Assembly: GCA_949373095.1 (NCBI GenBank)
Contig: CASIBY010000002.1
Coordinates: 1-46,189, forward strand
Direction: 5' to 3'
Length of the DNA stretch: 46,189 nucleotides
Source of the DNA: Candidatus Poseidoniaceae archaeon
GTDB taxonomy: Archaea > Thermoplasmatota > Poseidoniia > Poseidoniales > Poseidoniaceae
Below are positions 10,044 through 26,241 of the stretch, piece by piece (the first letter of the stretch is position 1; each line of letters starts with the position of its first letter). The notes beneath the pieces are model-generated. The model ran no database searches, had not been told where the DNA came from, and saw only the letters and a list, made by a program, of their open reading frames with translations. The position numbers were made by a program, and so were the translations under genes.

Positions 10044-10058
10044 CTGGATTGGATTTAG

Positions 10059-13204: not shown

Positions 13205-14617
13205 TCATTCTCCAAGATGAACGATAACTTTCATCTCAACTGCAATGGGAGTTGGTAGCGCATCAATCGCTAACGTGGTCCGAGTCGGGCCTACCTTTCC
13301 AAGTGTCTCAGCCCATACTTCATTGTAGCCCGAAAAGTCGCGCTTCATATCGATCAAGAACGTAGTAACATCAACAACTTGGTTCATCGTACCACCCGCT
13401 TCTTCAACTACTCGGCGAACGTTTTCAACCACTGCGTGAGTTTGAGCCTTGATGTCGTAATTTAGCGGCTCACCGTTTTCATCATGGATTGGACCGCCGG
13501 GGATTGCATTCGTGCCTGGTTGTCGTGGGCCAACGCCGGAGAGGTAGAGCATGTTTCCAACCCTTCGAGCATGGGGATAAGCTCCCACAGGTTTGGGGGC
13601 ACTATCGGTATTAACAGAACCTTCTCTTTCGGTCGGCTCCCAGAGTTCAGGTCCACTGTTCTGATTCGAGGCAGGTGTGAGTTCTTCAGCTTGAATCTCT
13701 TCAGCAGCGTCTAGAACGCCACGCTCACCGTGGAAATATTCAATGTCTTCTTCATCGTATTCCTTGTCTCCGACACCAGATGGTGTCGGGTCAAGATGGA
13801 CGACTGCTCCACCTGCACCGTGAATGGCTTCGTAAGCCATGACGTTTCCAGTCAAGTCGTTGCGGTTTCCATTCATGGCAGAAAGCCACCACATAGGCTT
13901 GAATGCAACAACTTTCTGAACACGGATTTGTTGCTGAATTGTACGGGAGAGTTGTCCAACATCTTCCAAGCGCCCTTGTCTAAGGAATTCAAGGATTTTT
14001 TGATTCCATTCATGGTCTTTGAGTGAGTGAATCTTATCTTCGGACGGTTCAATGAAGTCAGTGAACATACGGTTTGATAGCGACATTGCAGTGACTGCTA
14101 CAACCTTTTTCCCTTGAGCCTTAATTACGTCGAGGCATGCTTTTGCCATCACGGTTGTCTCGGAACGGTTTGCATAGACATTGGAGGATACGATTACAGC
14201 GGGAATTTTATTGTCGGGATTGAGCAATGTCAAAGCAACAACTGAACCCACGTCAATTGGAAACCCCTTGTAGTTGACGCAACGACTCTGCAATCCTCTG
14301 GCCTTGTTCGCTTCGTCCCATGCATGAGCAAATTTTTGGTCAATATTGAACGAATATGGGATGGAGCCTAGGTCGTGAAAATCATGGTCAACCATGACCC
14401 ATTCTGGGTTTGGGTCAGATTGAATTTGGTGGCCGATCACAGAGGGCCAGGTAGTTGAGTAAACAACGATCAAATCCGCATCAAGTTCACGAATAGTTTG
14501 AGCTGCTTGGTCAAAGGCTTCCCTGAGTCTTTTCCATCCCGGGTTTTGGTCTGGAGCAAGGACTGTATGAGGGTGTACCGGGACAACAAAAGATGCTACA
14601 ATCTCACCTTCGCTCAT
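13205..14617 (-). CDS. LigB-type extradiol dioxygenase non-catalytic subunit fused to 2-aminomuconate-deaminase-like RidA domain
   Basis: A two-domain protein of 470 residues. Residues 1 to about 305 match the LigB fold of the catalytic neighbour, with parallel segments. The metal His of the neighbour's SPHW is Thr here (STTW), and its SHRH catalytic region is SNRM. This resembles the non-catalytic alpha subunit of 2-aminophenol 1,6-dioxygenase (AmnA). After an acidic linker, residues 339-470 are a RidA/YjgF domain with R446 and E461 at the family's carboxylate-binding Arg and Glu positions. Its GVGPRQPG and ALPTPIAVE segments are, as I recall, typical of 2-aminomuconate deaminase (AmnD/NbaF). 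Its ATG overlaps the neighbour's TGA (ATGA) and follows a GGAGG ribosome binding site 7 nt away, so the two are translationally coupled. The fusion would join ring cleavage to the later deamination. Substrate is inferred, not proven. Confidence 0.85.
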   Translation of the reverse strand: MSEGEIVASFVVPVHPHTVLAPDQNPGWKRLREAFDQAAQTIRELDADLIVVYSTTWPSVIGHQIQSDPNPEWVMVDHDFHDLGSIPYSFNIDQKFAHAWDEANKARGLQSRCVNYKGFPIDVGSVVALTLLNPDNKIPAVIVSSNVYANRSETTVMAKACLDVIKAQGKKVVAVTAMSLSNRMFTDFIEPSEDKIHSLKDHEWNQKILEFLRQGRLEDVGQLSRTIQQQIRVQKVVAFKPMWWLSAMNGNRNDLTGNVMAYEAIHGAGGAVVHLDPTPSGVGDKEYDEEDIEYFHGERGVLDAAEEIQAEELTPASNQNSGPELWEPTEREGSVNTDSAPKPVGAYPHARRVGNMLYLSGVGPRQPGTNAIPGGPIHDENGEPLNYDIKAQTHAVVENVRRVVEEAGGTMNQVVDVTTFLIDMKRDFSGYNEVWAETLGKVGPTRTTLAIDALPTPIAVEMKVIVHLGE

Positions 14618-15516
14618 TCATCTCCCTCCTCATGAGCATGGCACGGCCATTCCACAATTGCATTTCCAGTTCCGATGATGGTTCCATAGCCGTGAAGAAT
14701 AGCAGGGTAGTCGGGTACATTCAGTGTTGAAAGCAACCATGAAAATGCCCCTCCGTCACTTTCCGCGATGGCTTGTTCAGTAAATTCAGGCATTTCATCC
14801 AAGATACGCTGACTTTGTCCTTTGACCATGTAATCGATCATGCGCATGTCCCATAGATGCATGGCGTGGCTCGTAATGTGCTCTTTGCTCATATCTTCAG
14901 GAACCTCTGATTCGGTCGTGAAATGTCGGTGTGAAAGAGAGTTACTTGCGATAACAACGACCCTCTTTCCACTCTCCTCAATCGCTTTCCGTGTGACCTT
15001 TCCAAGTTCAATCATCATGTCTTGCATCACTTCAACGGAATAGTATTGGCTCGAGCGGTTGCTTGAAATGACCACCATGGGTTTGTCCCATGAGGGGTTG
15101 AACATGTGTCCTGTTACAATGGTTCCATAGTCGACTCTGAAGTCGGGGTTCTCCATTAGTTTAACAGACAATCCAGAGGCTTGTGCTTCGTTGTGGATTG
15201 CTTTTGTGAGGTCAACATCAATGTTCAAATCGTAGTGATAACGGAATAGGTTTGGAAATACTGGGTCAACTGAAAGTCCTTCGAAATGAGGAAGTCCGAG
15301 AAAATGTGTTCCTACATAGGTTTGCCAGTGAGGTGAAAGTACCACGATAGCGTCATATTCAACATCGGCTAATGAAGCACGAAGACGTTCATATCCCCAT
15401 CGGAGTTGTTCCCAACCACCTTCAGCAGTGGGCTCATTTTGAGGTGGATTTTCAGCGTAAACCAAATGTGGTGGATGCGGAGCAAGACATCCTGCAACAA
15501 TTTTTCCTTTCCCCAT
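14614..15516 (-). CDS. LigB-type extradiol ring-cleavage dioxygenase, catalytic (beta) subunit
   Basis: A 300-residue class III extradiol dioxygenase of the LigB/AmnB type, which uses non-haem Fe(II) and O2 to open a dihydroxy- or aminohydroxy-benzene ring next to its hydroxyl. Predicted iron and catalytic residues are present: PHPPH (H14, H17) near the N-terminus, SPHW with H63, and SHRH in the second half. A Glu in the AESDGG segment is a candidate third iron ligand. I chose the ATG at 15514-15516 because the protein then starts MGKGKIVAGC as in relatives; the frame is open 15 codons further upstream. It is the first gene of a two-gene unit with the fused alpha-RidA partner. A palindrome at 15536-15547 lies 20 nt upstream. 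Homologues act on protocatechuate, homoprotocatechuate or 2-aminophenol; the fused deaminase favours an aminophenol. Confidence 0.88.
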   Translation of the reverse strand: MGKGKIVAGCLAPHPPHLVYAENPPQNEPTAEGGWEQLRWGYERLRASLADVEYDAIVVLSPHWQTYVGTHFLGLPHFEGLSVDPVFPNLFRYHYDLNIDVDLTKAIHNEAQASGLSVKLMENPDFRVDYGTIVTGHMFNPSWDKPMVVISSNRSSQYYSVEVMQDMMIELGKVTRKAIEESGKRVVVIASNSLSHRHFTTESEVPEDMSKEHITSHAMHLWDMRMIDYMVKGQSQRILDEMPEFTEQAIAESDGGAFSWLLSTLNVPDYPAILHGYGTIIGTGNAIVEWPCHAHEEGDE

Positions 15517-15535
15517 GATTATCCCATACTGAACT

Positions 15536-15547
15536 GCCCTAAAGGGC
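15536..15547. promoter_or_regulatory. Palindrome GCCCTAAAGGGC upstream of the dioxygenase genes
   Basis: Five-base arms around AA, ending 20 nt before the dioxygenase ATG. The CCCTAAAGGG core recurs at 38248-38257, 22 nt before the lonB ATG (21 nt if the full palindrome is counted). The centre lies about 25 nt upstream of the start, where the TATA box of a leaderless archaeal transcript would sit. It could therefore be a promoter element, or an operator overlapping one. Confidence 0.4.
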
Positions 15548-15604
15548 CATCGGATTTGCATTCTGTTTGCTCTCTACAAGCCAAGTCTCAAACACCACGA
15601 AGAT

Positions 15605-16144
15605 TTGGAGAGATATGTGTCAGAGGTAGGGGATGATGACGCTCCTGTTGATGGAGAGACTGTAAGTCATGAAATCCCGGTCTCTGGAGAATTCGTGTTA
15701 CCAACCTCCGCCGATTGGAACGAAACTTGGACCAATGTAGGCATTCCCACCTTCTTCGGAGCGATTGTAGGCGCGATTTGGCAATTACAGATTCAGGCTC
15801 GTTTGGGCACCGTTTGGCCCAATCCAGTTCAAGCAGCCTTACTCGCTATGTTGCTGTTTTCTCCTCTTTTCCATCGTTGGCTTACGCCTCATGAACAATC
15901 CAAATGGATGCAGTATTCCCTTGGCGTTCTTCTCCCTATAACCTATCTCGTCGGGATATGGTTTGTCCCTGGACTGACCGGTATGTTCTGTGGAGGGTAT
16001 CTTGCTTCCATCCTATGGATTTGGATGTGCACATCCTGGTGGCGTTTCAATCTCCCACCGTTCCGAAGTGCTCTGTGGCACACATTGGGCGTTAACATTG
16101 GGGCTTTGGGTGGCTCTGTGCTGACGTACAATCTCTTTCTGTGA
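15605..16144 (+). CDS. Hypothetical multi-pass membrane protein
   Basis: A 179-residue protein with an acidic soluble N-terminus (about 1-40) and four or five predicted hydrophobic segments (about 46-62, 76-92, 105-125, 127-147, 158-178). I do not recognise a family. There is no ATG near the front: the start is TTG at 15605 or GTG at 15617. It sits divergently from the dioxygenase pair and runs head-on into panB. Its TGA ends at 16144 and the panB stop begins at 16145, leaving no spacer. Its place between the two halves of a catabolic locus allows a transport or membrane-association role, but nothing in the sequence shows one. Confidence 0.65.
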   Translation: MERYVSEVGDDDAPVDGETVSHEIPVSGEFVLPTSADWNETWTNVGIPTFFGAIVGAIWQLQIQARLGTVWPNPVQAALLAMLLFSPLFHRWLTPHEQSKWMQYSLGVLLPITYLVGIWFVPGLTGMFCGGYLASILWIWMCTSWWRFNLPPFRSALWHTLGVNIGALGGSVLTYNLFL

Positions 16145-16966
16145 TCAGGACGTGTAGGATTCATCTTCGTTCGGGAATTGGCCCGAGCGAACATCACTGC
16201 AATACGACTTCAATGCTCCATCGATTTCTTCCGCTAGATTGAGATAACGACGGAGGAAACGGGGTGAGAAATCCATAGTGATTCCAAGAACATCATGGAG
16301 GACGAGAACTTGTCCGTCAACATCAGGTCCCGCTCCGATTCCAATCGTTGGAATGTCAATGGCTTCAGTAACTCGCTTTGCGAGTTCCCGGGGAATCTTT
16401 TCAAGCACGATAGCGAAACAACCTGCTTCCTCAAGAATTTTAGCATCTTCAATGAGTTTCTCAGCTTCTTCATCTTCTTTTGCACGGACAGAATAGGTTC
16501 CAAACTTGTATATCGACTGAGGTGTCAATCCTAGGTGGCCCATGACGGGAATGCCGGCGGTGAGGATACGTTGAACGGATTCAACGATTTCAGCCCCTCC
16601 TTCAAGTTTAACAGCATGGCCGCTTGATTCTTTCATGATGCGGATGGCTGACTCAAGAGCGTTCTTAGAATTTCCTTGATAGGTGCCAAAGGGCATGTCA
16701 ACCACCAAGAGTGCTCTGTCAACGGCCCGTTCCACACACTGCGCATGGTAGATCATGTGGTCAAGCGTCATGGGTACAGTTGTTGCTTGCCCGGCCATGA
16801 CATTGGAGGCCGAATCTCCGACCAAAATGACGTCAACTCCTGCTTGGTCAACAAGCCGAGCCAAGGAATAATCGTAGGCTGTAAGCATGGTGATTTTTTC
16901 ACCAGCACGCATCATTTCTTGAAGCGTGTTGGTCGTCACTTTGCGTGCCTTTCCATGAACCGACAT
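16145..16966 (-). CDS. panB: 3-methyl-2-oxobutanoate hydroxymethyltransferase (ketopantoate synthase)
   Basis: PanB transfers a hydroxymethyl group from 5,10-methylenetetrahydrofolate to 2-oxoisovalerate, making ketopantoate for pantothenate and coenzyme A. The 273 residues match the family length. Expected TIM-barrel motifs are seen: LTAYDY, VGDS with D51, VVDMPFGTY with D90, and the K120-L-E122 pair; these correspond to the metal- and substrate-binding residues of bacterial PanB. Glycine-rich IGIGAG and DVLG segments follow. It is 72 nt downstream of the ALDH in the same direction, so read-through from the catabolic run is possible, though a biosynthetic gene may have its own promoter in that gap. 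Function call is firm. Confidence 0.95.
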
Positions 16967-17038
16967 GGTTCTCCCACTGGCCCAGTTGATTTGAATGCCT
17001 CGCTTTGACTTTCGGGGGACAATTCTGCCAGTTTTAGT

Positions 17039-18487
17039 CTAAGGTTGCATGACACAAACATTGGTCATTTCAGAAAAGAAACTCATTGACCATGTGCCGC
17101 CTTCTCGTCCAACACCAGATTGTTTGACGCCTCCGAAAGGCGTCCGTAGGTCACGGTTTAACCATGTGTTCACCCATACAATTCCAGTTTCCATACGCTC
17201 TGCAAAGGCTCGGCCGCGCTCAATATCAGCCGTCCAAACCGAGCCAGCAAGTCCGTAATCCGTACAGTTAGCCATCATTACAGCCTCATCTTCATCTTTG
17301 TAGGCATGAAGGGTGACAACGGGACCAAAGATTTCCTCAGTTGCGGTACGAGCGGTATGGGGAAGTCCTCCAATAACAGTCGGGCGTAGGAATGCTCCGT
17401 CGGGATGAACTCCAGATGCTCCAGAATTTGCCTTTGTACCACCAGTTAGGAGCATCCCGCCTTCTTGAATCCCAAGTTGGATGTAAGATTCAACTTTTTC
17501 AAGATGTGCAAGCGAAATAACAGCTCCCATTTGGGTGTCATCATCCAGCGGGTTTCCAAGTTTGAGACGTTCAACACCCTCAACGAACTTCGCTGAAACT
17601 TCGTCGTACATAGAGTGAGGAATGAGTACTCTTGAGCCACACAAGCAAACTTGCCCTGAGTTTGTGAACGAGGCGCGGACGAGGTCGTCTACGATGTCAT
17701 CGACTGGGGCATCGTCAAGGAGAATCGTGGCATTTTTCCCGCCAAGTTCTAGTGAGAGTTTCTTGAACATCGGTGCAGCAGTGGCGGCAACAATTCTTCC
17801 TGTTGCAGTTCCTCCAGTGAAAGAGATTGCCTTGATGTTTGGATGTTCAACGATGGCTTGCCCAACTTCCGGTCCAAGTCCATGTACGAGATTGAATACT
17901 CCAGCAGGCAAGTTGAGTTCATGAAGTGTCTCAGCGAGCAAGTTCGCAGTCAAGGGTGTCATTTCAGACGGTTTGGCTACGATGGTATTTCCCATCAATA
18001 AGGCAGGTGCGACCTTCCATGTAAGGAGATAAAGCGGTAGATTCCAAGGAGTGATGAGCCCAACACATCCAACTGGAGAGCGATGGACGTAATTGATGGC
18101 ACCGTGGGCTTCAAATTCCATGGGCTCTTGTTCTCTTGCATAGTTTGCAAAGAAACGAAAATTGCTTACTGACCTTGCAGCGTCCACACGCCGAGAAAGG
18201 GAAATTGGTTTTCCAGTATCCTTTGTTTCAAGTTGGGCAATTTGCTCAGCCTTCGCCTCAAGGGCATCAGCGATACGGTCAAGCCATAGAATTCGGTCTT
18301 CAAATGTGGTTGCTTTCCAAGACGCCTCCGCTGCAGCCGCAGCAACGGTGGCTTTGTTGACATCGGTTGATGATGAACGAGGAATGGTGGTGATGATTTC
18401 GTTGGTGGCTGGATTGATGTTTTCCAACGTTTTGGCCGAATCAGCCTCTACAAACGAACCACCGATGTAGTTGAGGAGTGGTTTCAT
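17039..18487 (-). CDS. Aldehyde dehydrogenase, 2-aminomuconic/2-hydroxymuconic semialdehyde dehydrogenase type
   Basis: A NAD(P)-dependent aldehyde dehydrogenase of 482 residues. Catalytic residues are in place, counting from the preferred ATG at 18485-18487: TPWN with N149, LELGG with E247, and the nucleophile C281 in NSGQVC. The C-terminal VNTWLNRDLRTPFGG and SGVGREGG signature resembles the ALDH8/AmnC/HMS-dehydrogenase group that oxidises ring-cleavage semialdehydes. The frame is open to an ATG at 18535, but that would overlap the asparaginase-like gene by 46 nt. The chosen start gives the normal family N-terminus two bases after that gene's TGA. It would oxidise the semialdehyde made by the LigB pair and hand the product to the RidA domain. 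Exact substrate is inferred. Confidence 0.88.
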   Translation of the reverse strand: MKPLLNYIGGSFVEADSAKTLENINPATNEIITTIPRSSSTDVNKATVAAAAAEASWKATTFEDRILWLDRIADALEAKAEQIAQLETKDTGKPISLSRRVDAARSVSNFRFFANYAREQEPMEFEAHGAINYVHRSPVGCVGLITPWNLPLYLLTWKVAPALLMGNTIVAKPSEMTPLTANLLAETLHELNLPAGVFNLVHGLGPEVGQAIVEHPNIKAISFTGGTATGRIVAATAAPMFKKLSLELGGKNATILLDDAPVDDIVDDLVRASFTNSGQVCLCGSRVLIPHSMYDEVSAKFVEGVERLKLGNPLDDDTQMGAVISLAHLEKVESYIQLGIQEGGMLLTGGTKANSGASGVHPDGAFLRPTVIGGLPHTARTATEEIFGPVVTLHAYKDEDEAVMMANCTDYGLAGSVWTADIERGRAFAERMETGIVWVNTWLNRDLRTPFGGVKQSGVGREGGTWSMSFFSEMTNVCVMQP

Positions 18488-18489
18488 CT

Positions 18490-19605
18490 TCAGACCTCGG
18501 TTTCGTAGTTCCAACGGTCTCTGTCCGGATCCCATTCATCCCATGTTGGTACGGTTTCAAGAATGTCAACATAGGCTTCCGGAACGATTCCAGGTACAAT
18601 GAATGCTTTCTGTCGGTGAAGTGGATATGGATTCCTCAAGTTAATTCCCAGCACTCCAAGAAGAGCGCGAGCAACATACCAAGTTGCCTGAGAGTTCCAT
18701 CCATGTGCAATTTTGACAACAATGCCCAATCCCTTGGGGTAATCGGGATGTTCAATTGCCATGCCGAGAAGGCCGTCAGCTCCTTCTTTTGCGATGACCC
18801 TTCCTTCACCTGCTTTGAGGATAGTTGAATCCAATCGGTTGAATCCACCAACAAGGTCAGGGTGTCGAATCATGGACTCCCAAATCCAATCGTCATCTTT
18901 GTCACGAACCAAACCAGCATAGATTTTTGCGAGTTCAGACACCGTATTGGATACAGTAGGTAGACCACAACCGTCCTTGGCGATGCGAAGGGGCTTCCAG
19001 TCCTGACCGAGATAGGTTCGGAGTTGTTCCATGTAAGCACCAAACACCTCATGCGATGGGAGTGTGTATCCTGCTCTCTTCCACCCCTTGAGTTTACATC
19101 CGCGAAGAATTGCAGCATGCTCTCCAGAACAGGTGTGGAACCATCGGCGAGGCCGACGAACCTGCCGTCCAAATTGAATGAGTGGTACGTCAAGCGGAGT
19201 GAGCATCAAGGGCCATTCTGCTTGGGAAAGAAGAGATTGAGCTGCAGCGACGTGCTCGGTATCGCCATTATGGGAAGCGACTGCGATGGCCTTTTGCTCC
19301 CAACTACAATCTGCGAGTTCCTCCGTGAATGCTTTGAGCATGAAGGGTTTCATCATTGAGCGGCCATAGCAGAGAACGTTTCCGCCAAAGGAGTGAATCA
19401 CTTCGTCACCGTGGGCCCATGCGACTGCTCCGTGAATTGTGGTCTCAGAGACACCGTTTCGTCGGTAGTCCACAAGAGGCTCCCAAGCCACTTCACGGCC
19501 TGTTGGGATCCCCTCTACTCGCTCACCGAGAGGAGAAGTTGGATACATGGCAGAGCCTGGTTTTCCCGGTTGAACGGCTGAGAATGTGTCGTGATGAATG
19601 CCCAT
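18490..19605 (-). CDS. Asparaginase II family protein
   Basis: A 371-residue protein of the L-asparaginase II family, which is distinct from the classical type I/II bacterial asparaginases. Recognisable family segments are RSMMKPF, SHNGD.EH, CSGEHAAIL and DGCGLPT, in the expected order. The family hydrolyses the side-chain amide of asparagine in the few studied cases; most members are untested. The gene lies inside a tight run (9 nt after the flavin monooxygenase, 2 nt before the ALDH). It may act on an amide or cyclic-imide intermediate of the pathway, or simply release ammonia from asparagine. The family call is good; the role here is open. Confidence 0.82.
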   Translation of the reverse strand: MGIHHDTFSAVQPGKPGSAMYPTSPLGERVEGIPTGREVAWEPLVDYRRNGVSETTIHGAVAWAHGDEVIHSFGGNVLCYGRSMMKPFMLKAFTEELADCSWEQKAIAVASHNGDTEHVAAAQSLLSQAEWPLMLTPLDVPLIQFGRQVRRPRRWFHTCSGEHAAILRGCKLKGWKRAGYTLPSHEVFGAYMEQLRTYLGQDWKPLRIAKDGCGLPTVSNTVSELAKIYAGLVRDKDDDWIWESMIRHPDLVGGFNRLDSTILKAGEGRVIAKEGADGLLGMAIEHPDYPKGLGIVVKIAHGWNSQATWYVARALLGVLGINLRNPYPLHRQKAFIVPGIVPEAYVDILETVPTWDEWDPDRDRWNYETEV

Positions 19606-19614
19606 GTTCGTCCC

Positions 19615-20862
19615 TCATTCGTTTAGCATTGATTCCACTTTAGGTACGACCTGTTCCATGTAGGCTGTCATGTTGCGGCACACACGGTCAGAGTCGTGAT
19701 TGAAGAAATCAAACCACGCCATGATCCGGTCTTGTGGGTGGAAACGCTCAACCATTTGTTGTGCGATTTGTTCAACATTTCCGATAAGTGCGTTATTGGT
19801 GGCCCGTTCAACTTTTGAGGGGTCAATGGTTCCTTCAAGAGCGTTCCAATAGGCGTTGAGTGCTACTCTTGCTTCTTCTTTAGCGGCTTCTGATTGCTCT
19901 TCTGCAGTAAGCCCGTCTTCCGCGTTCAGGAATACAAAAGATGTACGGGGCATATCCCTTCTCTGCCAAGAGCCCCCGTTTGGGTGGTAGACTTCAGCCA
20001 TGCGTTGATGGGTGGAGTCAATGATTTCAGGGGCAGTGATGGAGAGGTTAAACACCTTGACAGGCAGGATGGAATTGACAAAAGTTTGTGCTCTTGGGTC
20101 GTGGCTTCCGATGATGAGTTCGAGAAGTTCCCGGCGGAAATTTTGGGGGATGATCTTCAACGATTCAAATGTATAACGGGGTGGGATTTCTATGGATTCA
20201 GGACGGTCATGCAGGCCTTCAAATTCAATTGCTGCGGATTGAACAGTTTCCCAATCATCATCGCTTCTAAAATTCGCACGAGTTAGGATCGTCGGATTGA
20301 TGTCCTCGGTGCTGATAACGTCGCCTCGTAACAAACGAAGGAAGATTTCGGCGGCTTCCATGAACACCTGACCACGTAGCGCAGGCCAAGCGGCTTCTTC
20401 GATCGAGTTGCGAGGAACGACGCCGTAAGGGCGCGCCATGAATTCAAATCGACCGGCAGAAAAGCCAACATGGAGCTTACGGTGTTCATTTGGGTTCATG
20501 CCCAGGTATGTGAGGACGTTCCCGATTCGCTCGGCTTGAGCAATCGGTCCGCCAGAGGCCAATATCGCCATGACTGCGCTTCCCATCTCAATGTTAGAAG
20601 TACGCCGAAAGGACTCAAGAGCAAGTTGAGGGAAGTCAGTGCAGAGGCCTACCTCACCCTGCCAGTGTGGGACAACCGGCCTTGAATTCGATTTTTGCTC
20701 CTCGGTAGAAAGGTGGGCTTGAGCGAGCCAACCGACGTTGAAACCGAGACGGTCGGCGCATTCTAATTGTTGAAAGTAATTCTGAAACATGGTTGCTTCT
20801 GAAGGAATGTGCCCATTTTCATCGGGGGTTTGAGAAATTGAAAAGAAAATGTCATGTTCCAT
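19615..20862 (-). CDS. Luciferase-like flavin-dependent monooxygenase (LLM family)
   Basis: A TIM-barrel protein of 415 residues resembling bacterial-luciferase-like monooxygenases, which use reduced FMN or F420 for oxygenation or hydride transfer. Family features are the N-terminal IFFSISQTP strand, a conserved GSAVMAI segment followed by AQAERIG, and an HVGFSAGRFEF segment in the barrel. I start at the ATG at 20860-20862 because GGTGG lies four bases before it; an in-frame ATG five codons upstream (20877) is the alternative. Position in the operon suggests it hydroxylates or opens the pathway substrate, as RutA does in pyrimidine breakdown, but no substrate signature is visible. Whether it uses FMN or F420 is undecided. 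Confidence 0.8.
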   Translation of the reverse strand: MEHDIFFSISQTPDENGHIPSEATMFQNYFQQLECADRLGFNVGWLAQAHLSTEEQKSNSRPVVPHWQGEVGLCTDFPQLALESFRRTSNIEMGSAVMAILASGGPIAQAERIGNVLTYLGMNPNEHRKLHVGFSAGRFEFMARPYGVVPRNSIEEAAWPALRGQVFMEAAEIFLRLLRGDVISTEDINPTILTRANFRSDDDWETVQSAAIEFEGLHDRPESIEIPPRYTFESLKIIPQNFRRELLELIIGSHDPRAQTFVNSILPVKVFNLSITAPEIIDSTHQRMAEVYHPNGGSWQRRDMPRTSFVFLNAEDGLTAEEQSEAAKEEARVALNAYWNALEGTIDPSKVERATNNALIGNVEQIAQQMVERFHPQDRIMAWFDFFNHDSDRVCRNMTAYMEQVVPKVESMLNE

Positions 20863-20912
20863 TTGTCCACCATCCATTCCATATCGCCTTGGCTCATAAT
20901 TCGTGCGTTCCG

Positions 20913-21764
20913 CTATTGTGAACCTTCATCCCCTTTCTGCGCAGATGGTTTGAGTTGCGTTAAGGCTTCAATGCGCACTTTTACTTGCTGTGGAGCGGGC
21001 AGGCCTTCAGCCATGTACACGTGGAGTAAATCGGAGAGAACCAGCATAGCAGATTCGTAATCTTCCCCAATTTCAGCAAGGTCAGCAAGCCCCCATCGGG
21101 CAACAAGTTGGCCAGAAATACTACCAAGTTCAACAGCTTGTTCGAGTGAATCGTTGTAGAGTTCTCGTGATGCCTCAAATTCACCAATTGTCGCTTTACA
21201 GTGAGCGAGTTCTGCAACTGCTTCCATCTGGGCAACGTGCTTATCGAGTTTAGTGACCAATTCCAGTCGCTCGGTACCGAGTGTGATTGCGGTTTCAAAA
21301 TCGTTTTGTTTCTTCGCAATGGCCATCAATAAAGCAAGACCGTAGGCCATACCATTGAGGTCTTGGAGTTGCTCTCGCAAACGAAGAGATCGGGTGGCGA
21401 TGGCTCGTGCTTCATCCAATGCTCCATTCGACATGTGCAGCAAAGCAACGTGATGGTGGACAGCAGCGGCAAGTTGATTTCCGAGGTCCATTGTTTCAGC
21501 ACTTTCAGCAAGGACAAGCATATTCTTTGCTGATGCCTTCAAGATTTTCATTCCCTCAAACCGTGCCCAACCACGCTCAATATCGTCTTCAGCGACATCG
21601 GATGCGTGATCTAAGAGTCGGTTGACGAGTTCATCATCTCCTAATTCCGATGCAAGTGGTATGAGTCGGAGGGCTAGGGATGTATTGATTCCGTCCATGG
21701 CTCCACCATGAGTTAGCATGTCCAACACTTGTCGTGCACGTTCTGGAGACAGTTCATTGACCAT
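20913..21764 (-). CDS. TPR-repeat protein in the catabolic operon
   Basis: A 283-residue, wholly alpha-helical, cytoplasmic protein with no signal or membrane segment. From about residue 95 it has four or five tetratricopeptide-like helical pairs, with A/L/Y spacing such as GALDEARAIA, NDFETAITLG, GEFEASRELY and EDYESAMLVL. The first 90 residues are helical but less regular. The start is supported by GGTGA four bases before the ATG. It sits 9 nt after the SDR gene and about 50 nt before the monooxygenase gene, so it is part of the same transcript. TPR proteins are scaffolds or regulators. Here it may organise the enzymes or sense a ligand, which is a guess. Confidence 0.7.
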   Translation of the reverse strand: MVNELSPERARQVLDMLTHGGAMDGINTSLALRLIPLASELGDDELVNRLLDHASDVAEDDIERGWARFEGMKILKASAKNMLVLAESAETMDLGNQLAAAVHHHVALLHMSNGALDEARAIATRSLRLREQLQDLNGMAYGLALLMAIAKKQNDFETAITLGTERLELVTKLDKHVAQMEAVAELAHCKATIGEFEASRELYNDSLEQAVELGSISGQLVARWGLADLAEIGEDYESAMLVLSDLLHVYMAEGLPAPQQVKVRIEALTQLKPSAQKGDEGSQ

Positions 21765-21773
21765 GATTTCACC

Positions 21774-22589
21774 TCAAATAGAGCGAAGGCGACCACCATC
21801 AACTGCTAGGCTAACACCGCGGATTCCGCCTGAAGCGGGCAGGGTCAAGAAGACGATCGCACTTGCAGTTTCCAGGGGGTCAATCAAGCGCTTTATCGGT
21901 ACTTGCGAGAGCCATGTGTCCTGCACTTCATCTGCTGTTTTTCCTGTTCGTTCCTGAATGGATTGAGCAAGTGAATCCAAACGGGAGGTGTTGGTGAATC
22001 CAGGAAGAACGTTGTTGATTGTGATGGACGGATGCAATTCATTTGACAGAGATTTCGCCCAAGAGGCCATAGCGCCACGGAGAGTGTTTGAGAGCCCAAT
22101 GTTGGGGATAGGTTCCTTGACAGAGGTCGAGATGATTTGGATAATGCGGCCGAATCCTTGTTCTTCCATTTGAGGTGCAAGTGCTTGAACAAGTGTGTGA
22201 GCGGCGTGAAGATGGCGCCTGAATGGCACTTCGAAATCACCAACCTTGTTGTTCATAAGAGGGCCCCCTGGAGGTCCCCCCGCATTGTTGATGAGAATAT
22301 GGACGGGGCCTGATGATTCGATCAAGGAGTTGACGGCGGAGTTTAGGTTCTCCGTGTCTTCAAGGTCGAGTTGGAGGGCAGTATGTTTCCCTTTTCCGAG
22401 GGTGTTCAATTCTTCTACGAGTTCTCTGAGGGCTGATTCATTTCTAGCACAAACAGTAACATTTGCACCAGCCTTTGCCATCATTTTTGCTGTAGCAGCA
22501 CCAATTCCTTTACTGGCTCCACAAACCAAGGCGTGCTTACCGCTGAGGGCACCTTGGGCGTATGGGAAGTCTGTTCCAAGCAGGTCCAT
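21774..22589 (-). CDS. Atypical short-chain dehydrogenase/reductase family protein
   Basis: A Rossmann-fold SDR protein of 271 residues. The cofactor motif GASKGIG (24-30) and NNAGG (101-105) are intact, and the R50 after the second strand suggests NADP(H). A Ser is present in IISTS (about 154-156). The usual catalytic Tyr-x-x-x-Lys is replaced by S167-N-T-L-R171. That replacement occurs in a known divergent SDR subgroup with an LSN...R motif, so the protein may reduce its substrate by another mechanism or may mainly bind it. It lies 35 nt after the hydrolase gene and 9 nt before the TPR gene. A dehydrogenase step in the aromatic pathway is the likeliest role. Confidence 0.82.
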   Translation of the reverse strand: MDLLGTDFPYAQGALSGKHALVCGASKGIGAATAKMMAKAGANVTVCARNESALRELVEELNTLGKGKHTALQLDLEDTENLNSAVNSLIESSGPVHILINNAGGPPGGPLMNNKVGDFEVPFRRHLHAAHTLVQALAPQMEEQGFGRIIQIISTSVKEPIPNIGLSNTLRGAMASWAKSLSNELHPSITINNVLPGFTNTSRLDSLAQSIQERTGKTADEVQDTWLSQVPIKRLIDPLETASAIVFLTLPASGGIRGVSLAVDGGRLRSI

Positions 22590-22624
22590 GCCTTGCCCAT
22601 GAAGCCGATGGTCATAGCCCTTCG

Positions 22625-23371
22625 CTACAACCAGTCAAGAATTGCGTTGAGCTGAACCAACCAATCATCACTTGCTACATCAATAATATCATAGTGGTTC
22701 CCTGGAAGCCAAATTTTCTGAACATCGGCACCTTTTGCCTTCATAATTCGGGCATATGTTTCGGATTGGAGAAGAGGTACGTCGGTATCTTCTTCACCGT
22801 GAAACAAGAGAACGCTGGTCTTAGGTGGATGGTCAACGGGATTGAGGCGTGACCATGTTTCAGGGTTTTCATCAGGTGAACAACCCAACCATTTCCGCAC
22901 GGCGTCTCCTTCATCCGAAAGACGAGCATGGTCTGCACCTACGAGGTCGGTAAGAGGTGCCTGGGCGATGGCGAGCCAAGGTTTCCGGTCTGCTTTTGCA
23001 GCCAGAATTAGAGCGAGTTGACCCCCAGCGGAGTGCCCCATTACCATAGAACGAGTGATGTCAATTCCTGGAAGGAGTGCGAGTTGCCCCCAAGCACGCA
23101 ATACATCAGACAAAGTATCCATCCAAACGCCTTCATCACCATCAGTCCAGCGCTTGAATTCCACGTTCCAAACAGCAACTCCTGCCTCGGCCAAGTCTTC
23201 AGCGATGGGTTGCATCAAATCTAGCGTATACTCTTCTTTCCAAAAACCGCCGTGAATTAGCATAATGCAAGGAACCCCGACATTCCGTTGAAATGGCGAC
23301 GGGTCGTCGGGCATGTAGAGATCAGCATACTGCCATTCTTCCGCTCCCCACTGCATACGGTCAACGGGCAT
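22625..23371 (-). CDS. Alpha/beta hydrolase, kynurenine formamidase-like
   Basis: A cytoplasmic serine hydrolase of 248 residues. HGGFW at 40-44 forms the oxyanion hole and is the HGGxW signature of animal-type kynurenine formamidases and related carboxylesterases. The nucleophile elbow is GHSAGG with S114, and the rest of the triad is D195 (HGEEDTDVP) and H226 (GNHYD). Kynurenine formamidase releases formate from N-formylkynurenine. With the downstream aminomuconate-type enzymes, an aryl-formamide or aryl-ester hydrolysis is plausible, but general esterase activity cannot be excluded. It is the first gene of the long minus-strand run, with a 13-nt palindrome directly before its ATG. A start five codons later (M6) is possible. 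Confidence 0.8.
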   Translation of the reverse strand: MPVDRMQWGAEEWQYADLYMPDDPSPFQRNVGVPCIMLIHGGFWKEEYTLDLMQPIAEDLAEAGVAVWNVEFKRWTDGDEGVWMDTLSDVLRAWGQLALLPGIDITRSMVMGHSAGGQLALILAAKADRKPWLAIAQAPLTDLVGADHARLSDEGDAVRKWLGCSPDENPETWSRLNPVDHPPKTSVLLFHGEEDTDVPLLQSETYARIMKAKGADVQKIWLPGNHYDIIDVASDDWLVQLNAILDWL

Positions 23372-23403: not shown

Positions 23404-26241
23404 TTGCGAAGTGAATGCCGTGGGAAGACCTTTCAACCTAAAAGAACTAGCAGCACCGTGAGATGGCACATTTGGGCACTTCTCTTCGTTTTGCTGTCCC
23501 CTTCATGGGTGGCGGCAGCAGGCGATAGTGGCCGAGCAATGAACACCGATGTTTCATTGCAACGTTTCGATTGGTTTTCAAATGAAACCGTCATCATTGA
23601 TTATTCGCTACGCGATGCTCCTTTCCAGCAATCTCTTACTGCTTCATGGTCTCTTCTGGATGAAGATGGTTCTCAACTTCTCAACGGAACCCATCACTTC
23701 CAAGCTGCAGGGACATTCACCACGTTTGAGGTTGAGTTAGAAGCCTTTTACAGTGGCTCTCACTTCTACTCATATGAGACTGAAATTCGATCCCAAAATG
23801 GAAACATCATCGGGGAAGAAACAGTTGAATTCATGGTTTTTGAACAGGCGATGATGCCAAATGTTGCAACTCTTCTCTCGTTTGGAGACTCATTGTCCGA
23901 CATGGGGAACGCAAAGAATTCATTTCTCAACACCCCCGATGTACCACCATACTGGCAAGGGCGGTTTTCAAACGGTGAAGTTTGGTTTGGCTACATGGAT
24001 GATGCTTACGGTACGACAGTGAGCATTGGCTCAGGGATAGCAGCAGGAGATAACCGAGCATTTGGGGGGGCGCAGACAGGAAGTGGTTATGCATATCTTG
24101 TGATACCGAATGTCGGGACTCAAATTACAAATTACCTTGGAAGCGTTCAATCAACGATACCTTCGAATGCTGTGGTCTCACTTTGGGCGGGGGGAAATGA
24201 CTTCCTCTACGGCACTGCGAACGCCAATACAATCTCCGCCAATATGGAATCCCACATCCGACAATTGCATGGCGCCGGTGCTAGCACTCTCATTGTTCCA
24301 AATCTACCACCTCTTGAGATGACTCCCGAAATACTGAGCAAAAGTGCTTCGCAGCAAGCCACTATTCGTGATGAAGTCATTGATTACAATACCAAATTAG
24401 ACACTATCGTTACAGATTTACGCATCGAATTAGGAATGACCATTCACACCATTGATGCATGGTCTATTTTCCACGATATCGTCCTCCACAAGGAAGCCCT
24501 CGGGCTTACCAATACTCAAGATGCAGCCTGTTCAGGAAGCTCTACTCTGTTGCCCCTCCCCATATGTGACAGTGCAAGCACAATTGCTCCCAATCCGGAC
24601 GAGTACCTCTTTTTTGACAAAGCCCACCCCACTAGGGTGATGCACAAATTTATTGCAAGGTATGCCGTTGAATCAATTGGTACTCCTGACCGAGATGGCG
24701 ATGGTATTGTGAACTCTTTCGACCAATGCCCATGGACCGATGAAACAGAACAGACCAATCAACAAGGGTGTTCATGGAATCAATTGGATGACGATTCGGA
24801 TGGTGTCGTTAACGGCCTTGATGCCTGCCCAAATACTGCCGAAGGAGATAGTGTCAACGCAGCGGGTTGCTCCGCAGTACAGCGAGATTCGGATAACGAC
24901 GGGCTCAACGACTTCGAAGACCCCTGCCCGTTTAGCCCCTCACTCAACGATTACGATTCTGATGGGTGTTCAAACAGTGAGGACGACGATGACGATAACG
25001 ATGGCGTCATGGATGTTGCTGACACTTGCCCACAAGGAATCATTGGAACCCACCTCTATGACTTAGATGGTGACGGATGTTCTGACCTTGAAGACAGTGA
25101 TATCGACGGAGATGGCCTGGATAATGCCGCTGAAGAAGCAATCGGTAGTGACCCGCTCAATCCCGATACAGACGGCGATTCTTATCTGGATGGAGAGGAT
25201 AAATTCCCACTTGACCCAAACGAGTGGAGCGATATTGACCTAGATGGATGTGGTGATAATGGGGATGAATTCCCATTCGACCGAACTGAATGTCTTGACT
25301 CTGACAAGGATGGCTACGGAGACAATGCAGACCGTTTTCCAGAAGATGAGGATGAATGGATGGATTCAGATGACGACGGAATCGGAGATAATGGGGATGC
25401 ATGTTTCCTGCTTTACGGGCTGTCTTTGTATCCGCTAGGATGTCCGGATCGTGACGGAGATGGCTTTGCTGACACCAATGACCGCTTCCCAAACGATGCT
25501 AGCGAATGGAACGATACCGATGAGGACGGCATTGGTGATAACAGTGATTTATTCCCACAGGATTCAACGGATTGGGCCGACAAAGACAATGATTCCTACG
25601 GAGATAATCGTGACGCTTTCCCATCAGACCCTAATGAATGGAACGATACCGATGGAGAGGGCGTGGGAGATAATGCCGATGTCTTCCCCGAAGATGCTAC
25701 TGAATGGATTGACACCGATGGAGATGGATGTGGTGATAACGGAGACGTGTTTCTAAACGACTCAACCGAATGTCTTGACAGTGATGTTGATGGTGTTGGC
25801 GATAACGCAGATGCCTTTCCTGACAGTGCCTACGAATGGCTTGATTCCGATGGCGACGGTCTTGGAGATAATGCTGATAAATTCCCCTTTGATGCTCAGG
25901 GGAAGTACGATACCGATGGTGATGGCATTGCAAATGCTTTGGATACATTTCCAAATCAAGCATCACTTGATTCATGGTTTGATGTAATCCTCCGATTGAT
26001 GCTTTTGATAGTTCTAATCGGTGCTGGAGGATTTTACTACAAGCATTCTCAATCCGATGATGATATGAATTCTATCGGCTATCTCAACGATTTCCATCAA
26101 GAAACGCTTCTTACAGATGCCACTATACCCCTCGCACCTCCCTCAATGGATTCCTTTTCCACACCTGTTTCGCATGAATTAGAAACTGCTGAATCAGTGG
26201 AGCATGACCCCTATCCATACTTGCCTCCACCAAAGGTGTGA
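23404..26241 (+). CDS. Secreted GDSL/SGNH esterase with thrombospondin type-3 calcium repeats and C-terminal anchor
   Basis: An exported hydrolase of 945 residues. After a signal peptide (hydrophobic core about 22-39) comes a beta-rich segment. A GDSL lipase domain follows, with block I FGDSLSD (S163), block III GGND (263-266) and block V DKAHP (D405, H408), as in the phospholipase/lecithinase/hemolysin group. Residues about 429-858 are a long run of Asp-rich thrombospondin type-3-like repeats (DTDGDGxGDNxDxFP), which should bind many calcium ions and stiffen the stalk. A membrane helix lies near 861-880, with an 65-residue cytoplasmic tail. The longest frame starts at TTG 23404; GTG at 23458 gives a tighter signal peptide and is equally likely. 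It probably cleaves lipid or polysaccharide esters outside the cell. Confidence 0.88.
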   Translation: MRSECRGKTFQPKRTSSTVRWHIWALLFVLLSPSWVAAAGDSGRAMNTDVSLQRFDWFSNETVIIDYSLRDAPFQQSLTASWSLLDEDGSQLLNGTHHFQAAGTFTTFEVELEAFYSGSHFYSYETEIRSQNGNIIGEETVEFMVFEQAMMPNVATLLSFGDSLSDMGNAKNSFLNTPDVPPYWQGRFSNGEVWFGYMDDAYGTTVSIGSGIAAGDNRAFGGAQTGSGYAYLVIPNVGTQITNYLGSVQSTIPSNAVVSLWAGGNDFLYGTANANTISANMESHIRQLHGAGASTLIVPNLPPLEMTPEILSKSASQQATIRDEVIDYNTKLDTIVTDLRIELGMTIHTIDAWSIFHDIVLHKEALGLTNTQDAACSGSSTLLPLPICDSASTIAPNPDEYLFFDKAHPTRVMHKFIARYAVESIGTPDRDGDGIVNSFDQCPWTDETEQTNQQGCSWNQLDDDSDGVVNGLDACPNTAEGDSVNAAGCSAVQRDSDNDGLNDFEDPCPFSPSLNDYDSDGCSNSEDDDDDNDGVMDVADTCPQGIIGTHLYDLDGDGCSDLEDSDIDGDGLDNAAEEAIGSDPLNPDTDGDSYLDGEDKFPLDPNEWSDIDLDGCGDNGDEFPFDRTECLDSDKDGYGDNADRFPEDEDEWMDSDDDGIGDNGDACFLLYGLSLYPLGCPDRDGDGFADTNDRFPNDASEWNDTDEDGIGDNSDLFPQDSTDWADKDNDSYGDNRDAFPSDPNEWNDTDGEGVGDNADVFPEDATEWIDTDGDGCGDNGDVFLNDSTECLDSDVDGVGDNADAFPDSAYEWLDSDGDGLGDNADKFPFDAQGKYDTDGDGIANALDTFPNQASLDSWFDVILRLMLLIVLIGAGGFYYKHSQSDDDMNSIGYLNDFHQETLLTDATIPLAPPSMDSFSTPVSHELETAESVEHDPYPYLPPPKV

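What the first reader, a model, noticed from the sequence alone, without database searches (positions are those of the whole stretch)
13205..23371. Archaeal locus resembling a 2-aminophenol / kynurenine-type meta-cleavage pathway
Seen: a LigB-type dioxygenase pair, a RidA domain of the 2-aminomuconate deaminase type, an ALDH of the aminomuconic/hydroxymuconic semialdehyde dehydrogenase type, an HGGxW hydrolase, an LLM flavin monooxygenase, an SDR and an asparaginase-II-family protein, nearly all on one strand with small gaps. Known: AmnAB, AmnC and AmnD act in this order on 2-aminophenol in Pseudomonas, and HGGxW is the kynurenine formamidase signature. Inference: a marine archaeon breaks down an aminated aromatic this way. 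I know of no described archaeal pathway with this gene set. Decarboxylase, hydratase and aldolase genes for the later steps are not in the window.
Basis: partly seen in the sequence, partly recalled or inferred. Interest (0 to 1): 0.85.

Follow-up and report, generated by a model that had tools for sequence, protein, structure and literature searches.

The report
Kynureninase-free tryptophan ring-cleavage gene cluster
A gene cluster kept by most marine Poseidoniia archaea, and found again in bacteria of several phyla, appears to break tryptophan down through kynurenine and 2-aminophenol without the usual enzyme kynureninase, a route I could not find described.

Summary
LigB-beta, the alpha/RidA fusion and the ALDH each have aminophenol or aminomuconate enzymes as nearest solved structures. 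The cluster's LLM flavoprotein occurs in 263 of 292 genomes of the class.

Relatives reveal the substrate. In another family of the class (named members: Marine Group III) one operon reads TDO-SDR-LLM-AspII-ALDH-LigB-LigA-RidA-formyltransferase. Six of 47 bacterial loci have that order with KynB at the end. Kynureninase exceeds its cut-off in 0 of 24 genomes with such loci outside actinomycetes and in 1 of 59 relatives.

I infer: tryptophan -> N-formylkynurenine -> kynurenine; LLM makes a Baeyer-Villiger oxygen insertion; the asparaginase-II-like enzyme releases aspartate and 2-aminophenol; AmnBA-, AmnC- and AmnD-like steps give 4-oxalocrotonate. Both ends rest on homology and synteny; the middle is chemical inference, untested. 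The SDR, the flavin reductase and the fate of 4-oxalocrotonate in these archaea are unexplained. Ten paper searches found no description.

The parts
13205..14617 (-). fusion: non-catalytic alpha subunit of an aminophenol-type dioxygenase (about residues 1-280) + RidA domain of 2-aminomuconate-deaminase type (about 334-469)
14614..15561 (-). catalytic beta subunit (LigB) of an aminophenol-type 1,6-dioxygenase; homology starts at residue 16
17039..18535 (-). 2-aminomuconate 6-semialdehyde dehydrogenase type ALDH; homology starts at about residue 18
18490..19605 (-). class-3 (R. etli-type) asparaginase-II homologue, proposed beta-aspartyl ester/anilide hydrolase
19615..20877 (-). LLM (luciferase-family) flavoprotein, proposed kynurenine Baeyer-Villiger monooxygenase
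20913..21764 (-). TPR protein, role unknown; found between SDR and LLM in several relatives, not in the bacterial operons
21774..22589 (-). atypical SDR with SNxxR where YxxxK is expected; constant partner, role unknown
22625..23371 (-). HGGFW alpha/beta hydrolase, proposed N-formylkynurenine deformylase
16145..16966 (-). PanB, ketopantoate hydroxymethyltransferase: an adjacent gene kept in place in these archaea, probably not part of the route

Best explanation
The locus is most of a tryptophan-degrading pathway that bypasses kynureninase. (1) TDO, in this genome on another contig (G000:C1:152523-153527), makes N-formylkynurenine. (2) A deformylase gives kynurenine: the HGGFW hydrolase here, a Formyl_trans_N protein in sister lineages, KynB in bacteria. 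(3) The LLM flavoprotein inserts oxygen between ketone and ring (type II Baeyer-Villiger), giving the 2-aminophenyl ester of aspartate, which could rearrange to the o-hydroxyanilide, an N-aryl asparagine. (4) The asparaginase-II homologue hydrolyses that beta-aspartyl bond to L-aspartate + 2-aminophenol. (5) LigB/LigA cleave 2-aminophenol to 2-aminomuconate semialdehyde. (6) ALDH oxidises it to 2-aminomuconate. (7) RidA deaminates it to 4-oxalocrotonate. Steps 1, 2, 5, 6 and 7 are inferred from homology and operon structure; steps 3 and 4 are inferred from chemistry, gene content and the lack of kynureninase. No step is shown by experiment.
For: Operon in family f3: TDO-SDR-LLM-AspII-ALDH-LigB-LigA-RidA-Formyl_trans_N, co-directional with small gaps. 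In bacteria six of 47 loci have TDO-SDR-LLM-AspII-ALDH-LigB-LigA-RidA-KynB in that order on one strand, and a groundwater Thermoplasmata (L133) has all nine with SDR last. Seven KynB-position proteins match TIGR03035 arylformamidase at 191.6-214.0 bits, E 1.6e-56 to 2.2e-63. Kynureninase over cut-off: 0 of 24 non-actinomycete genomes with these loci, 2 of 2 actinomycetes with a lone LLM, 1 of 59 relatives; no kynureninase-like hit in 80 loci. 3-HAO over cut-off in 4 of 73 genomes, clearly in two only, G041 and G318, which also have kynureninase. Nearest solved structures: beta, alpha, ALDH and RidA all point to the aminophenol route. Beta ligand positions H13/H62/E251 are kept in 62 loci. AspII catalytic Ser-Lys pairs are kept in 44 of 44, and its identity across archaea and bacteria is 68-77% against at most 32.1% in the ten listed ordinary asparaginases. 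Type II BVMOs are luciferase-family proteins (abstract of PMC4631483). Three unrelated families fill the deformylase slot.
Against: No enzyme activity, cofactor or structure was determined; the structure job was not collected. The LLM is far from every solved structure (no single-sequence hit at E<=10; profile best 5.9e-5 to an alkanal monooxygenase alpha chain). No flavin reductase gene was recognised in the operon, though none was searched for in the genomes. The SDR, constant in 33 of 33 archaeal and 35 of 47 bacterial loci, has no step in this scheme. AspII is missing from 17 of 47 bacterial LLM loci, among them stretches of 19 kb or more (L097, L098, L111, L114, L117, L119, L139, L141, L152). 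TDO was found near LLM in only 16 of 47 bacterial loci; it is missing from G039 and G050 (91% and 90% complete), which carry the LLM and LigB. All seven KynB and all five TDO proteins tested score below their NCBIfam cut-offs. DmpG is over cut-off in 4 of 73 genomes, none of them archaeal.
Confidence: 0.62

Rival explanations
1. 3-hydroxykynurenine route: the LLM hydroxylates the kynurenine ring at C3 (a KMO analogue), the LigB/LigA enzyme cleaves 3-hydroxykynurenine itself, and the hydrolases remove the side chain afterwards.
For: TDO and formamidase in the operon and no kynureninase fit equally well; 3-hydroxykynurenine is also an o-aminophenol (recalled chemistry).
Against: Asparaginase-type enzymes cleave C-N amide, not C-C, bonds (ReAV passages). 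Beta, ALDH and RidA match 2-aminophenol and 2-aminomuconate enzymes, which do not carry the side chain.
Confidence: 0.15
2. An unrecognised enzyme replaces kynureninase and yields anthranilate; the LLM then hydroxylates and decarboxylates anthranilate to 2-aminophenol; AspII does something else, such as asparagine use.
For: Weak class-V aminotransferase-like matches exist in many genomes (24 of 59 at E<=0.001; 6 of the 24 non-actinomycete genomes).
Against: AspII lies directly after LLM in most clusters and is unusually conserved; those weak matches also ring in 10 of 14 control genomes; nothing else in the operon resembles a PLP enzyme.
Confidence: 0.12
3. A plain 2-aminophenol pathway of the Pseudomonas/Burkholderia amn kind acting on external aminophenols, as first suggested; the TDO association is by chance.
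For: AmnB, AmnA, AmnC and AmnD counterparts are all present.
Against: TDO plus a formamidase or formyltransferase share the operon in many lineages. The five amn operon betas form a separate 100/100 clade. LLM, AspII and SDR would have no role; the two annotated amn loci with a lower pathway that I fetched show dmpG or FAH genes instead.
Confidence: 0.08

Closest known systems
amn/cnb 2-aminophenol pathway (Comamonas CNB-1 pCNB; Burkholderia xenovorans LB400, abstract seen in PMC3790839)
   Same: Catalytic beta + non-catalytic alpha dioxygenase, aminomuconate-semialdehyde dehydrogenase, RidA-type deaminase
   Different: Here with TDO, deformylase, LLM, AspII and SDR; alpha is fused to RidA in the window; decarboxylase, hydratase and aldolase absent from the window; beta outside the amn clade
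Kynurenine-anthranilate pathway (TDO, formamidase, kynureninase; passages of PMC10384668)
   Same: TDO and formamidase steps
   Different: Kynureninase is missing over cut-off in 58 of 59 relatives and in 24 of 24 non-actinomycete genomes searched
Tryptophan to 2-aminomuconate by way of 3-hydroxyanthranilate (Colabroy and Begley 2005; only its reference line seen, paper not held, content recalled)
   Same: Would converge on 2-aminomuconate semialdehyde, dehydrogenase and deaminase (recalled)
   Different: Needs KMO, kynureninase, 3-HAO and ACMSD (recalled); clear 3-HAO hits in only 2 of 73 genomes; KMO and ACMSD not searched
Type II (FMN, luciferase-family) Baeyer-Villiger monooxygenases such as 3,6-diketocamphane monooxygenase (PMC4631483, abstract and section list)
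   Same: Luciferase superfamily; ketone to ester chemistry proposed here
   Different: No direct sequence match; substrate and cofactor unknown
Class 3 L-asparaginase ReAV (PMC8602277, passages)
   Same: Same family; Ser48-Lys51 and Ser80-Lys263 counterparts kept in 44 of 44
   Different: Zinc ligand Lys138 position is Glu in 38 and Gln in 6 of 44; 6 of 44 also lack both Cys counterparts; 68-77% identical within the clade, at most 32.1% to the ten listed plasmid asparaginases

Membership tests
2-aminophenol 1,6-dioxygenase (AmnBA/CnbCbCa) | Catalytic beta with metal ligands at H13, H62, E251 of CnbCb (ligand numbers recalled) | tested here: met
   63 of 63 rows (62 loci, window counted twice; some loci are the same contig)
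2-aminophenol 1,6-dioxygenase (AmnBA/CnbCbCa) | Homologous alpha subunit without the metal ligands | tested here: met
   Positions 62 and 251 show other residues among the commonest letters listed; 2 of 64 rows have His at position 13; best solved hits are the alpha subunits
2-aminophenol 1,6-dioxygenase (AmnBA/CnbCbCa) | Beta groups inside the clade of amn operon betas | tested here: not met
   Five amn rows are one clade (100/100) without the other 43 rows; nearest relative all the same
2-aminophenol 1,6-dioxygenase (AmnBA/CnbCbCa) | Cleaves 2-aminophenol | not testable with these tools
   needs purified enzyme
2-aminomuconate 6-semialdehyde dehydrogenase | Nearest characterised relatives are AMSDH | tested here: met
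   Top seven solved-structure hits, E 1.1e-140 to 2.3e-131, before 9.9e-119 for the next; below the cut-off of the nearest NCBIfam model (534.8 of 693.25 bits)
2-aminomuconate deaminase (RidA type) | Nearest solved relative is a 2-aminomuconate deaminase | tested here: met
   6izh E 2.7e-24; next RidA 4.2e-20
Tryptophan 2,3-dioxygenase | PF03301 over cut-off | tested here: met
   265 of 292 class genomes, own genome included; 15 solved matches to L053, all named TDO; below NCBIfam TIGR03036 cut-off in the five proteins tested
Kynurenine formamidase, AFMID/HGGxW type (window ABH) | Match to a solved kynurenine formamidase | tested here: not met
   Ten solved hits, mainly esterases, none named kynurenine formamidase; HGGFW in 6 of 6 loci; role inferred from place
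Kynurenine formamidase KynB (bacterial operons) | TIGR03035 equivalog over cut-off | tested here: not met
   Seven proteins at 191.6-214.0 bits, cut-off 223.05; sole family hit in each, E<=1.6e-56; PF04199 over cut-off in the three tested
Kynureninase route | Kynureninase TIGR01814 over cut-off | tested here: not met
   1 of 59 relatives; 0 of 24 non-actinomycete genomes and 2 of 2 actinomycetes
Type II Baeyer-Villiger monooxygenase | Luciferase-family fold | tested here: inconclusive
   PF00296 15 bits in the window protein, under its cut-off; 59 of 59 relatives match at E<=1; profile hit to an alkanal monooxygenase 5.9e-5; model not obtained
Type II Baeyer-Villiger monooxygenase | Ketone to ester activity with FMN | not testable with these tools
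   needs purified enzyme
Class 3 L-asparaginase | Two Ser-Lys tandems (Ser48/Lys51, Ser80/Lys263) | tested here: met
   S83, K86, S111, K273 in 44 of 44, mapped by the alignment; ReAV roles from passages
Class 3 L-asparaginase | Zinc site Cys135, Lys138, Cys189 | tested here: not met
   Lys position is E in 38 and Q in 6; Cys pair kept in 38 of 44; the zinc is reported as non-catalytic
Classical SDR oxidoreductase | Catalytic YxxxK (motif recalled) | tested here: not met
   Y position is S in 93 and G in 1 of 94 rows; K position is R in 94 of 94

The most novel reading that the evidence does not exclude
Kynurenine is not cleaved by kynureninase but by a two-enzyme Baeyer-Villiger/asparaginase relay: an LLM flavoprotein turns the aryl ketone into 2-aminophenyl beta-aspartate (or its N-aryl asparagine rearrangement product), and a dedicated asparaginase-II relative frees aspartate and 2-aminophenol for ring cleavage. 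This would be a previously undescribed route of tryptophan catabolism, shared by Poseidoniia archaea and bacteria of several phyla, and the five sampled amn (xenobiotic aminophenol) dioxygenases would be its close cousins.
Probability: 0.55. Interest if true: 0.92.

Novelty: new variant of a known kind. Interest (0 to 1): 0.83.

Why it matters
Poseidoniales are described as the most abundant planktonic archaea of ocean surface waters and have no cultured representatives (abstract of PMC6461757, search listing). Near-universal retention of this route would make tryptophan, or another kynurenine source, a standing carbon and nitrogen supply for them; aspartate release would feed central metabolism directly. 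It would also give functions to two uncharacterised enzyme subfamilies and offer genes that can be tested at once in E. coli. Of ten paper searches, nine bore on novelty and none returned a description (one search was about the asparaginase). Three Poseidoniales papers searched for terms hold no mention of tryptophan, kynurenine or dioxygenase in their main text. Only openly licensed papers are held, so print elsewhere is not excluded.

Tried and rejected
Lower meta-cleavage genes: FAA_hydrolase PF01557 is in 52 of 59 relatives, one match each, domain hits of about 180-195 residues, and not in the window's own incomplete genome; I did not work out what it does. DmpG over cut-off only in G295, G300, G314 and G318 of 73. 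So the fate of 4-oxalocrotonate in the archaea stays open.

TDO versus cluster co-absence: among the 271 f1+f2 genomes (negatives that were not listed were worked out by subtraction), LLM is missing in 24, TDO in 20, both in 7 (1.8 expected if independent). Not corrected for genome completeness (65-80% in those seven), so I do not lean on it. Thirteen f1/f2 genomes have LLM without TDO, and 17 TDO without LLM. In f3, where TDO is in the operon, G059 (97% complete) lacks LLM and TDO (by subtraction), LigB and a strong formyltransferase match.

PanB as a pathway enzyme: rejected; it scores as ordinary PanB and was not looked for in the bacterial operons. Streptomyces clavuligerus: 48% identical LLM, but none of the other query proteins within 31 kb. 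First beta tree: one Novosphingobium row was out of frame; rebuilt correctly. My ORF caller keeps the longest non-overlapping frame and misses genes in GC-rich loci, so bacterial gene content comes from tblastn. The 80 genome-contig loci are the best 80 of 417 relatives, ranked by likeness to the S. clavuligerus LLM, so their proportions are not a census. KMO, ACMSD, flavin reductases and F420 genes were not searched.
Full report
What is there. Between 23371 and 13205 on the minus strand lie, in reading order, an HGGFW alpha/beta hydrolase, an SDR, a TPR protein, an LLM-like flavoprotein, an asparaginase-II homologue, an aldehyde dehydrogenase, PanB, a LigB protein and a LigB-RidA fusion. Gaps are mostly 9 to 72 bases and some frames overlap. 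No tRNA or known RNA family was found in the window.

The lower half is an aminophenol route. The LigB protein matches solved 2-aminophenol 1,6-dioxygenase beta subunits over its whole length (E 2.2e-109, 1.5e-104 and 4.2e-93), while the only other type listed, a homoprotocatechuate enzyme, is at 3.1e-10. In plasmid records five hits are 51-56% identical and the next listed is at 27% or below (30 of 45 listed). The positions of the metal ligands (numbers recalled) are His, His, Glu in all 63 rows (62 loci, the window twice); the alpha subunit has lost them, as in the known enzyme, apart from His at position 13 in two of 64 rows. The alpha part matches solved alpha subunits best (4.5e-40), and the RidA part matches 2-aminomuconate deaminase 6izh (2.7e-24) ahead of any other RidA. 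For the ALDH the seven best solved structures are all 2-aminomuconate 6-semialdehyde dehydrogenases. A tree of 48 betas puts five amn-operon betas in one clade (100/100) apart from the tryptophan-type betas, so the window enzyme is AmnB-like but not of that clade.

Conservation in the class. LigB was found in 56 of 59 relatives, LLM in 263 of 292 genomes of the class and TDO (PF03301) in 266, of which 265 are over cut-off. In family f1 (window) the genes form one cluster; in f2 there are two clusters, [Formyl_trans_N]-SDR-LLM-AspII-ALDH and LigB-LigA-RidA, though in some f2 genomes they stand together (L038, L043, L047, L049). In f3 a single co-directional operon reads TDO-SDR-LLM-AspII-ALDH-LigB-LigA-RidA-[Formyl_trans_N]: TDO stands next to SDR-LLM in 9 of the 14 f3 stretches, and the other five are short or cut near that end. 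Loci whose record titles say Marine Group III show the same operon (L142, L164), which is how I place f3; family names are otherwise not given by the tool. In the window's own genome TDO is on another contig.

Outside the class. A scan of GTDB genomes with an LLM alignment gave 417 relatives, of which the best 80 were kept: 47 bacterial and 33 archaeal by record title. In the 47 bacterial loci I found AspII 30, ALDH 32, SDR 35, LigB 19, LigA 18, RidA 15, TDO 16 and KynB 15 times; 13 have SDR, LLM, AspII, ALDH, LigB, LigA and RidA together, under record names of Acidobacteriota, Planctomycetota, Myxococcota, Pseudomonadota and Krumholzibacteriota; six have all nine in the same order on one strand (L099, L100, L110, L118, L124, L150). 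L133, a groundwater Thermoplasmata, has all nine with SDR at the end. Many loci are cut by contig ends, and 17 bacterial loci have no AspII, nine of them in stretches of about 19 kb or more. KynB-position proteins match arylformamidase TIGR03035 just below its cut-off (191.6-214.0 of 223.05 bits, seven proteins).

Three deformylases. The slot for N-formylkynurenine deformylation is filled by KynB in bacteria, by a Formyl_trans_N protein in f2, f3 and three f1 genera, and by the HGGFW hydrolase in the window's genus. A whole-genome search with the f2 formyltransferase gave strong matches in 20 of 20 f2 genomes (one a fragment of 60.5 bits), 9 of 10 f3 genomes (not G059) and 3 of 25 f1 genomes (G030, G033, G034); elsewhere only matches of 45 bits or less. 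The hydrolase was found in the window, L035, L050-L052 and L080, none from those three f1 genomes; it was not searched for genome-wide. No one of these is proven to deformylate, but unrelated families meeting at one place argue for that reaction.

No kynureninase. TIGR01814 is over cut-off in 1 of 59 relatives (G041; 24 of 59 show any match at E<=0.001) and in 0 of 24 genomes of non-actinomycete LLM loci (23 with AspII beside LLM, plus L141; six have weak matches), while both actinomycetes with a lone LLM have it. The same weak matches ring in 10 of 14 control genomes. G041 also has 3-HAO, as has one of the actinomycetes, G318; two further 3-HAO hits barely pass the cut-off (26.3 and 25.5 against 25; 4 of 73 in all). 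Completeness of the bacterial genomes is not told, so single absences carry little weight; their agreement carries more.

The middle step. Between kynurenine and 2-aminophenol stand LLM, AspII and SDR. The acyl side chain of kynurenine is a beta-aspartyl group (recalled chemistry). A Baeyer-Villiger oxidation would give the 2-aminophenyl ester of aspartate, and O-to-N acyl shift would give an N-aryl asparagine; an asparaginase-type hydrolase would then release aspartate and 2-aminophenol, the substrate of the next enzyme. Type II Baeyer-Villiger enzymes are luciferase-family proteins (abstract of PMC4631483). AspII keeps the two Ser-Lys tandems that are catalytic in R. etli ReAV (S83, K86, S111, K273, 44 of 44; with the alignment and the passages), but its zinc ligand Lys138 position is Glu (38) or Gln (6), and six rows lack the Cys pair. 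It is 68-77% identical between the window and archaeal or bacterial members and at most 32.1% to the ten listed plasmid asparaginases. This argues for a dedicated substrate.

Loose ends. The SDR carries S-N-x-x-R in place of YxxxK (S in 93 and R in 94 of 94 rows); a Burkholderia structure (5vps) shows the same letters in its alignment. It may not be a dehydrogenase, and I cannot place it. The fate of 4-oxalocrotonate in the archaea is open. A Myxococcales locus (L141) has FAH, DmpF, DmpG, FAH, SDR, LLM, ALDH together, which ties LLM to the meta-cleavage lower pathway in one bacterium. An amino-acid permease with an EF-hand domain lies beside the alpha/RidA gene in L051; similar-sized frames in other relatives were not identified.

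Novelty. Searches for MGII with kynurenine, Poseidoniales with dioxygenase, kynurenine with Baeyer-Villiger or 2-aminophenol, and tryptophan routes through aminophenol returned no description of this route (listings and, for some papers, passages). The Rid family survey PMC4433059 mentions 2-aminomuconate deaminase only in its introduction and references (passages). Three Poseidoniales papers have no hit for tryptophan, kynurenine or dioxygenase in the main text (one mentions aromatic amino-acid synthesis). Known parts at both ends and a new middle make this a new variant of aerobic tryptophan catabolism; if the middle chemistry is right, that step itself is new.

Noticed in passing
L141 (Myxococcales, genome contigs) 5733-12660: FAH, DmpF, DmpG and FAH genes directly before SDR-LLM-ALDH, with no AspII or LigB in the 21 kb.
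   Followed up: partly
L097, L098, L139 and S. clavuligerus L067: Actinomycete relatives of the LLM (44-48% identical to the window protein) without the operon; L098 has a TDO-like gene directly upstream of LLM and its genome has kynureninase. Perhaps natural-product tailoring of kynurenine.
   Followed up: partly
L053 1423-3802; G000:C1 (L061) 7227-9591: In the window's genus TDO lies beside a gene like formate-using FAICAR synthetase (PurP family, 483.8 bits, cut-off 603), so formate released from N-formylkynurenine might be reused for purines.
   Followed up: no
window 21774-22589 and 94 rows: SDR subfamily with invariant N and R in SNxxR in place of the YxxxK motif, constant companion of the LLM.
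   Followed up: partly
G041 (L057 1483-2724 and C44:106547-106987): The one relative with clear kynureninase and clear 3-HAO, in addition to the cluster.
   Followed up: no
L051 6673-8334: Amino-acid permease with C-terminal EF-hand domain beside the alpha/RidA gene.
   Followed up: no
L033 1174-2622 and L039 2862-4301: Sodium/hydrogen exchangers that also end in EF-hand domains.
   Followed up: no
L085 and L086 (both G084): Two copies of the cluster in one genome with 6% contamination: duplication or mixed bin.
   Followed up: no
L113: Record titled Klebsiella pneumoniae MAG carries SDR-LLM-ALDH like environmental bacteria; probably a mislabelled bin.
   Followed up: no
window 858-10043 and 10059-12674: Two neighbouring long proteins (3061 and 871 aa); each has matches of 22-27% to proteins related to the other in relatives' loci.
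   Followed up: no
window 23404-26241: GDSL lipase domain followed by thrombospondin-type-3-like repeats.
   Followed up: no
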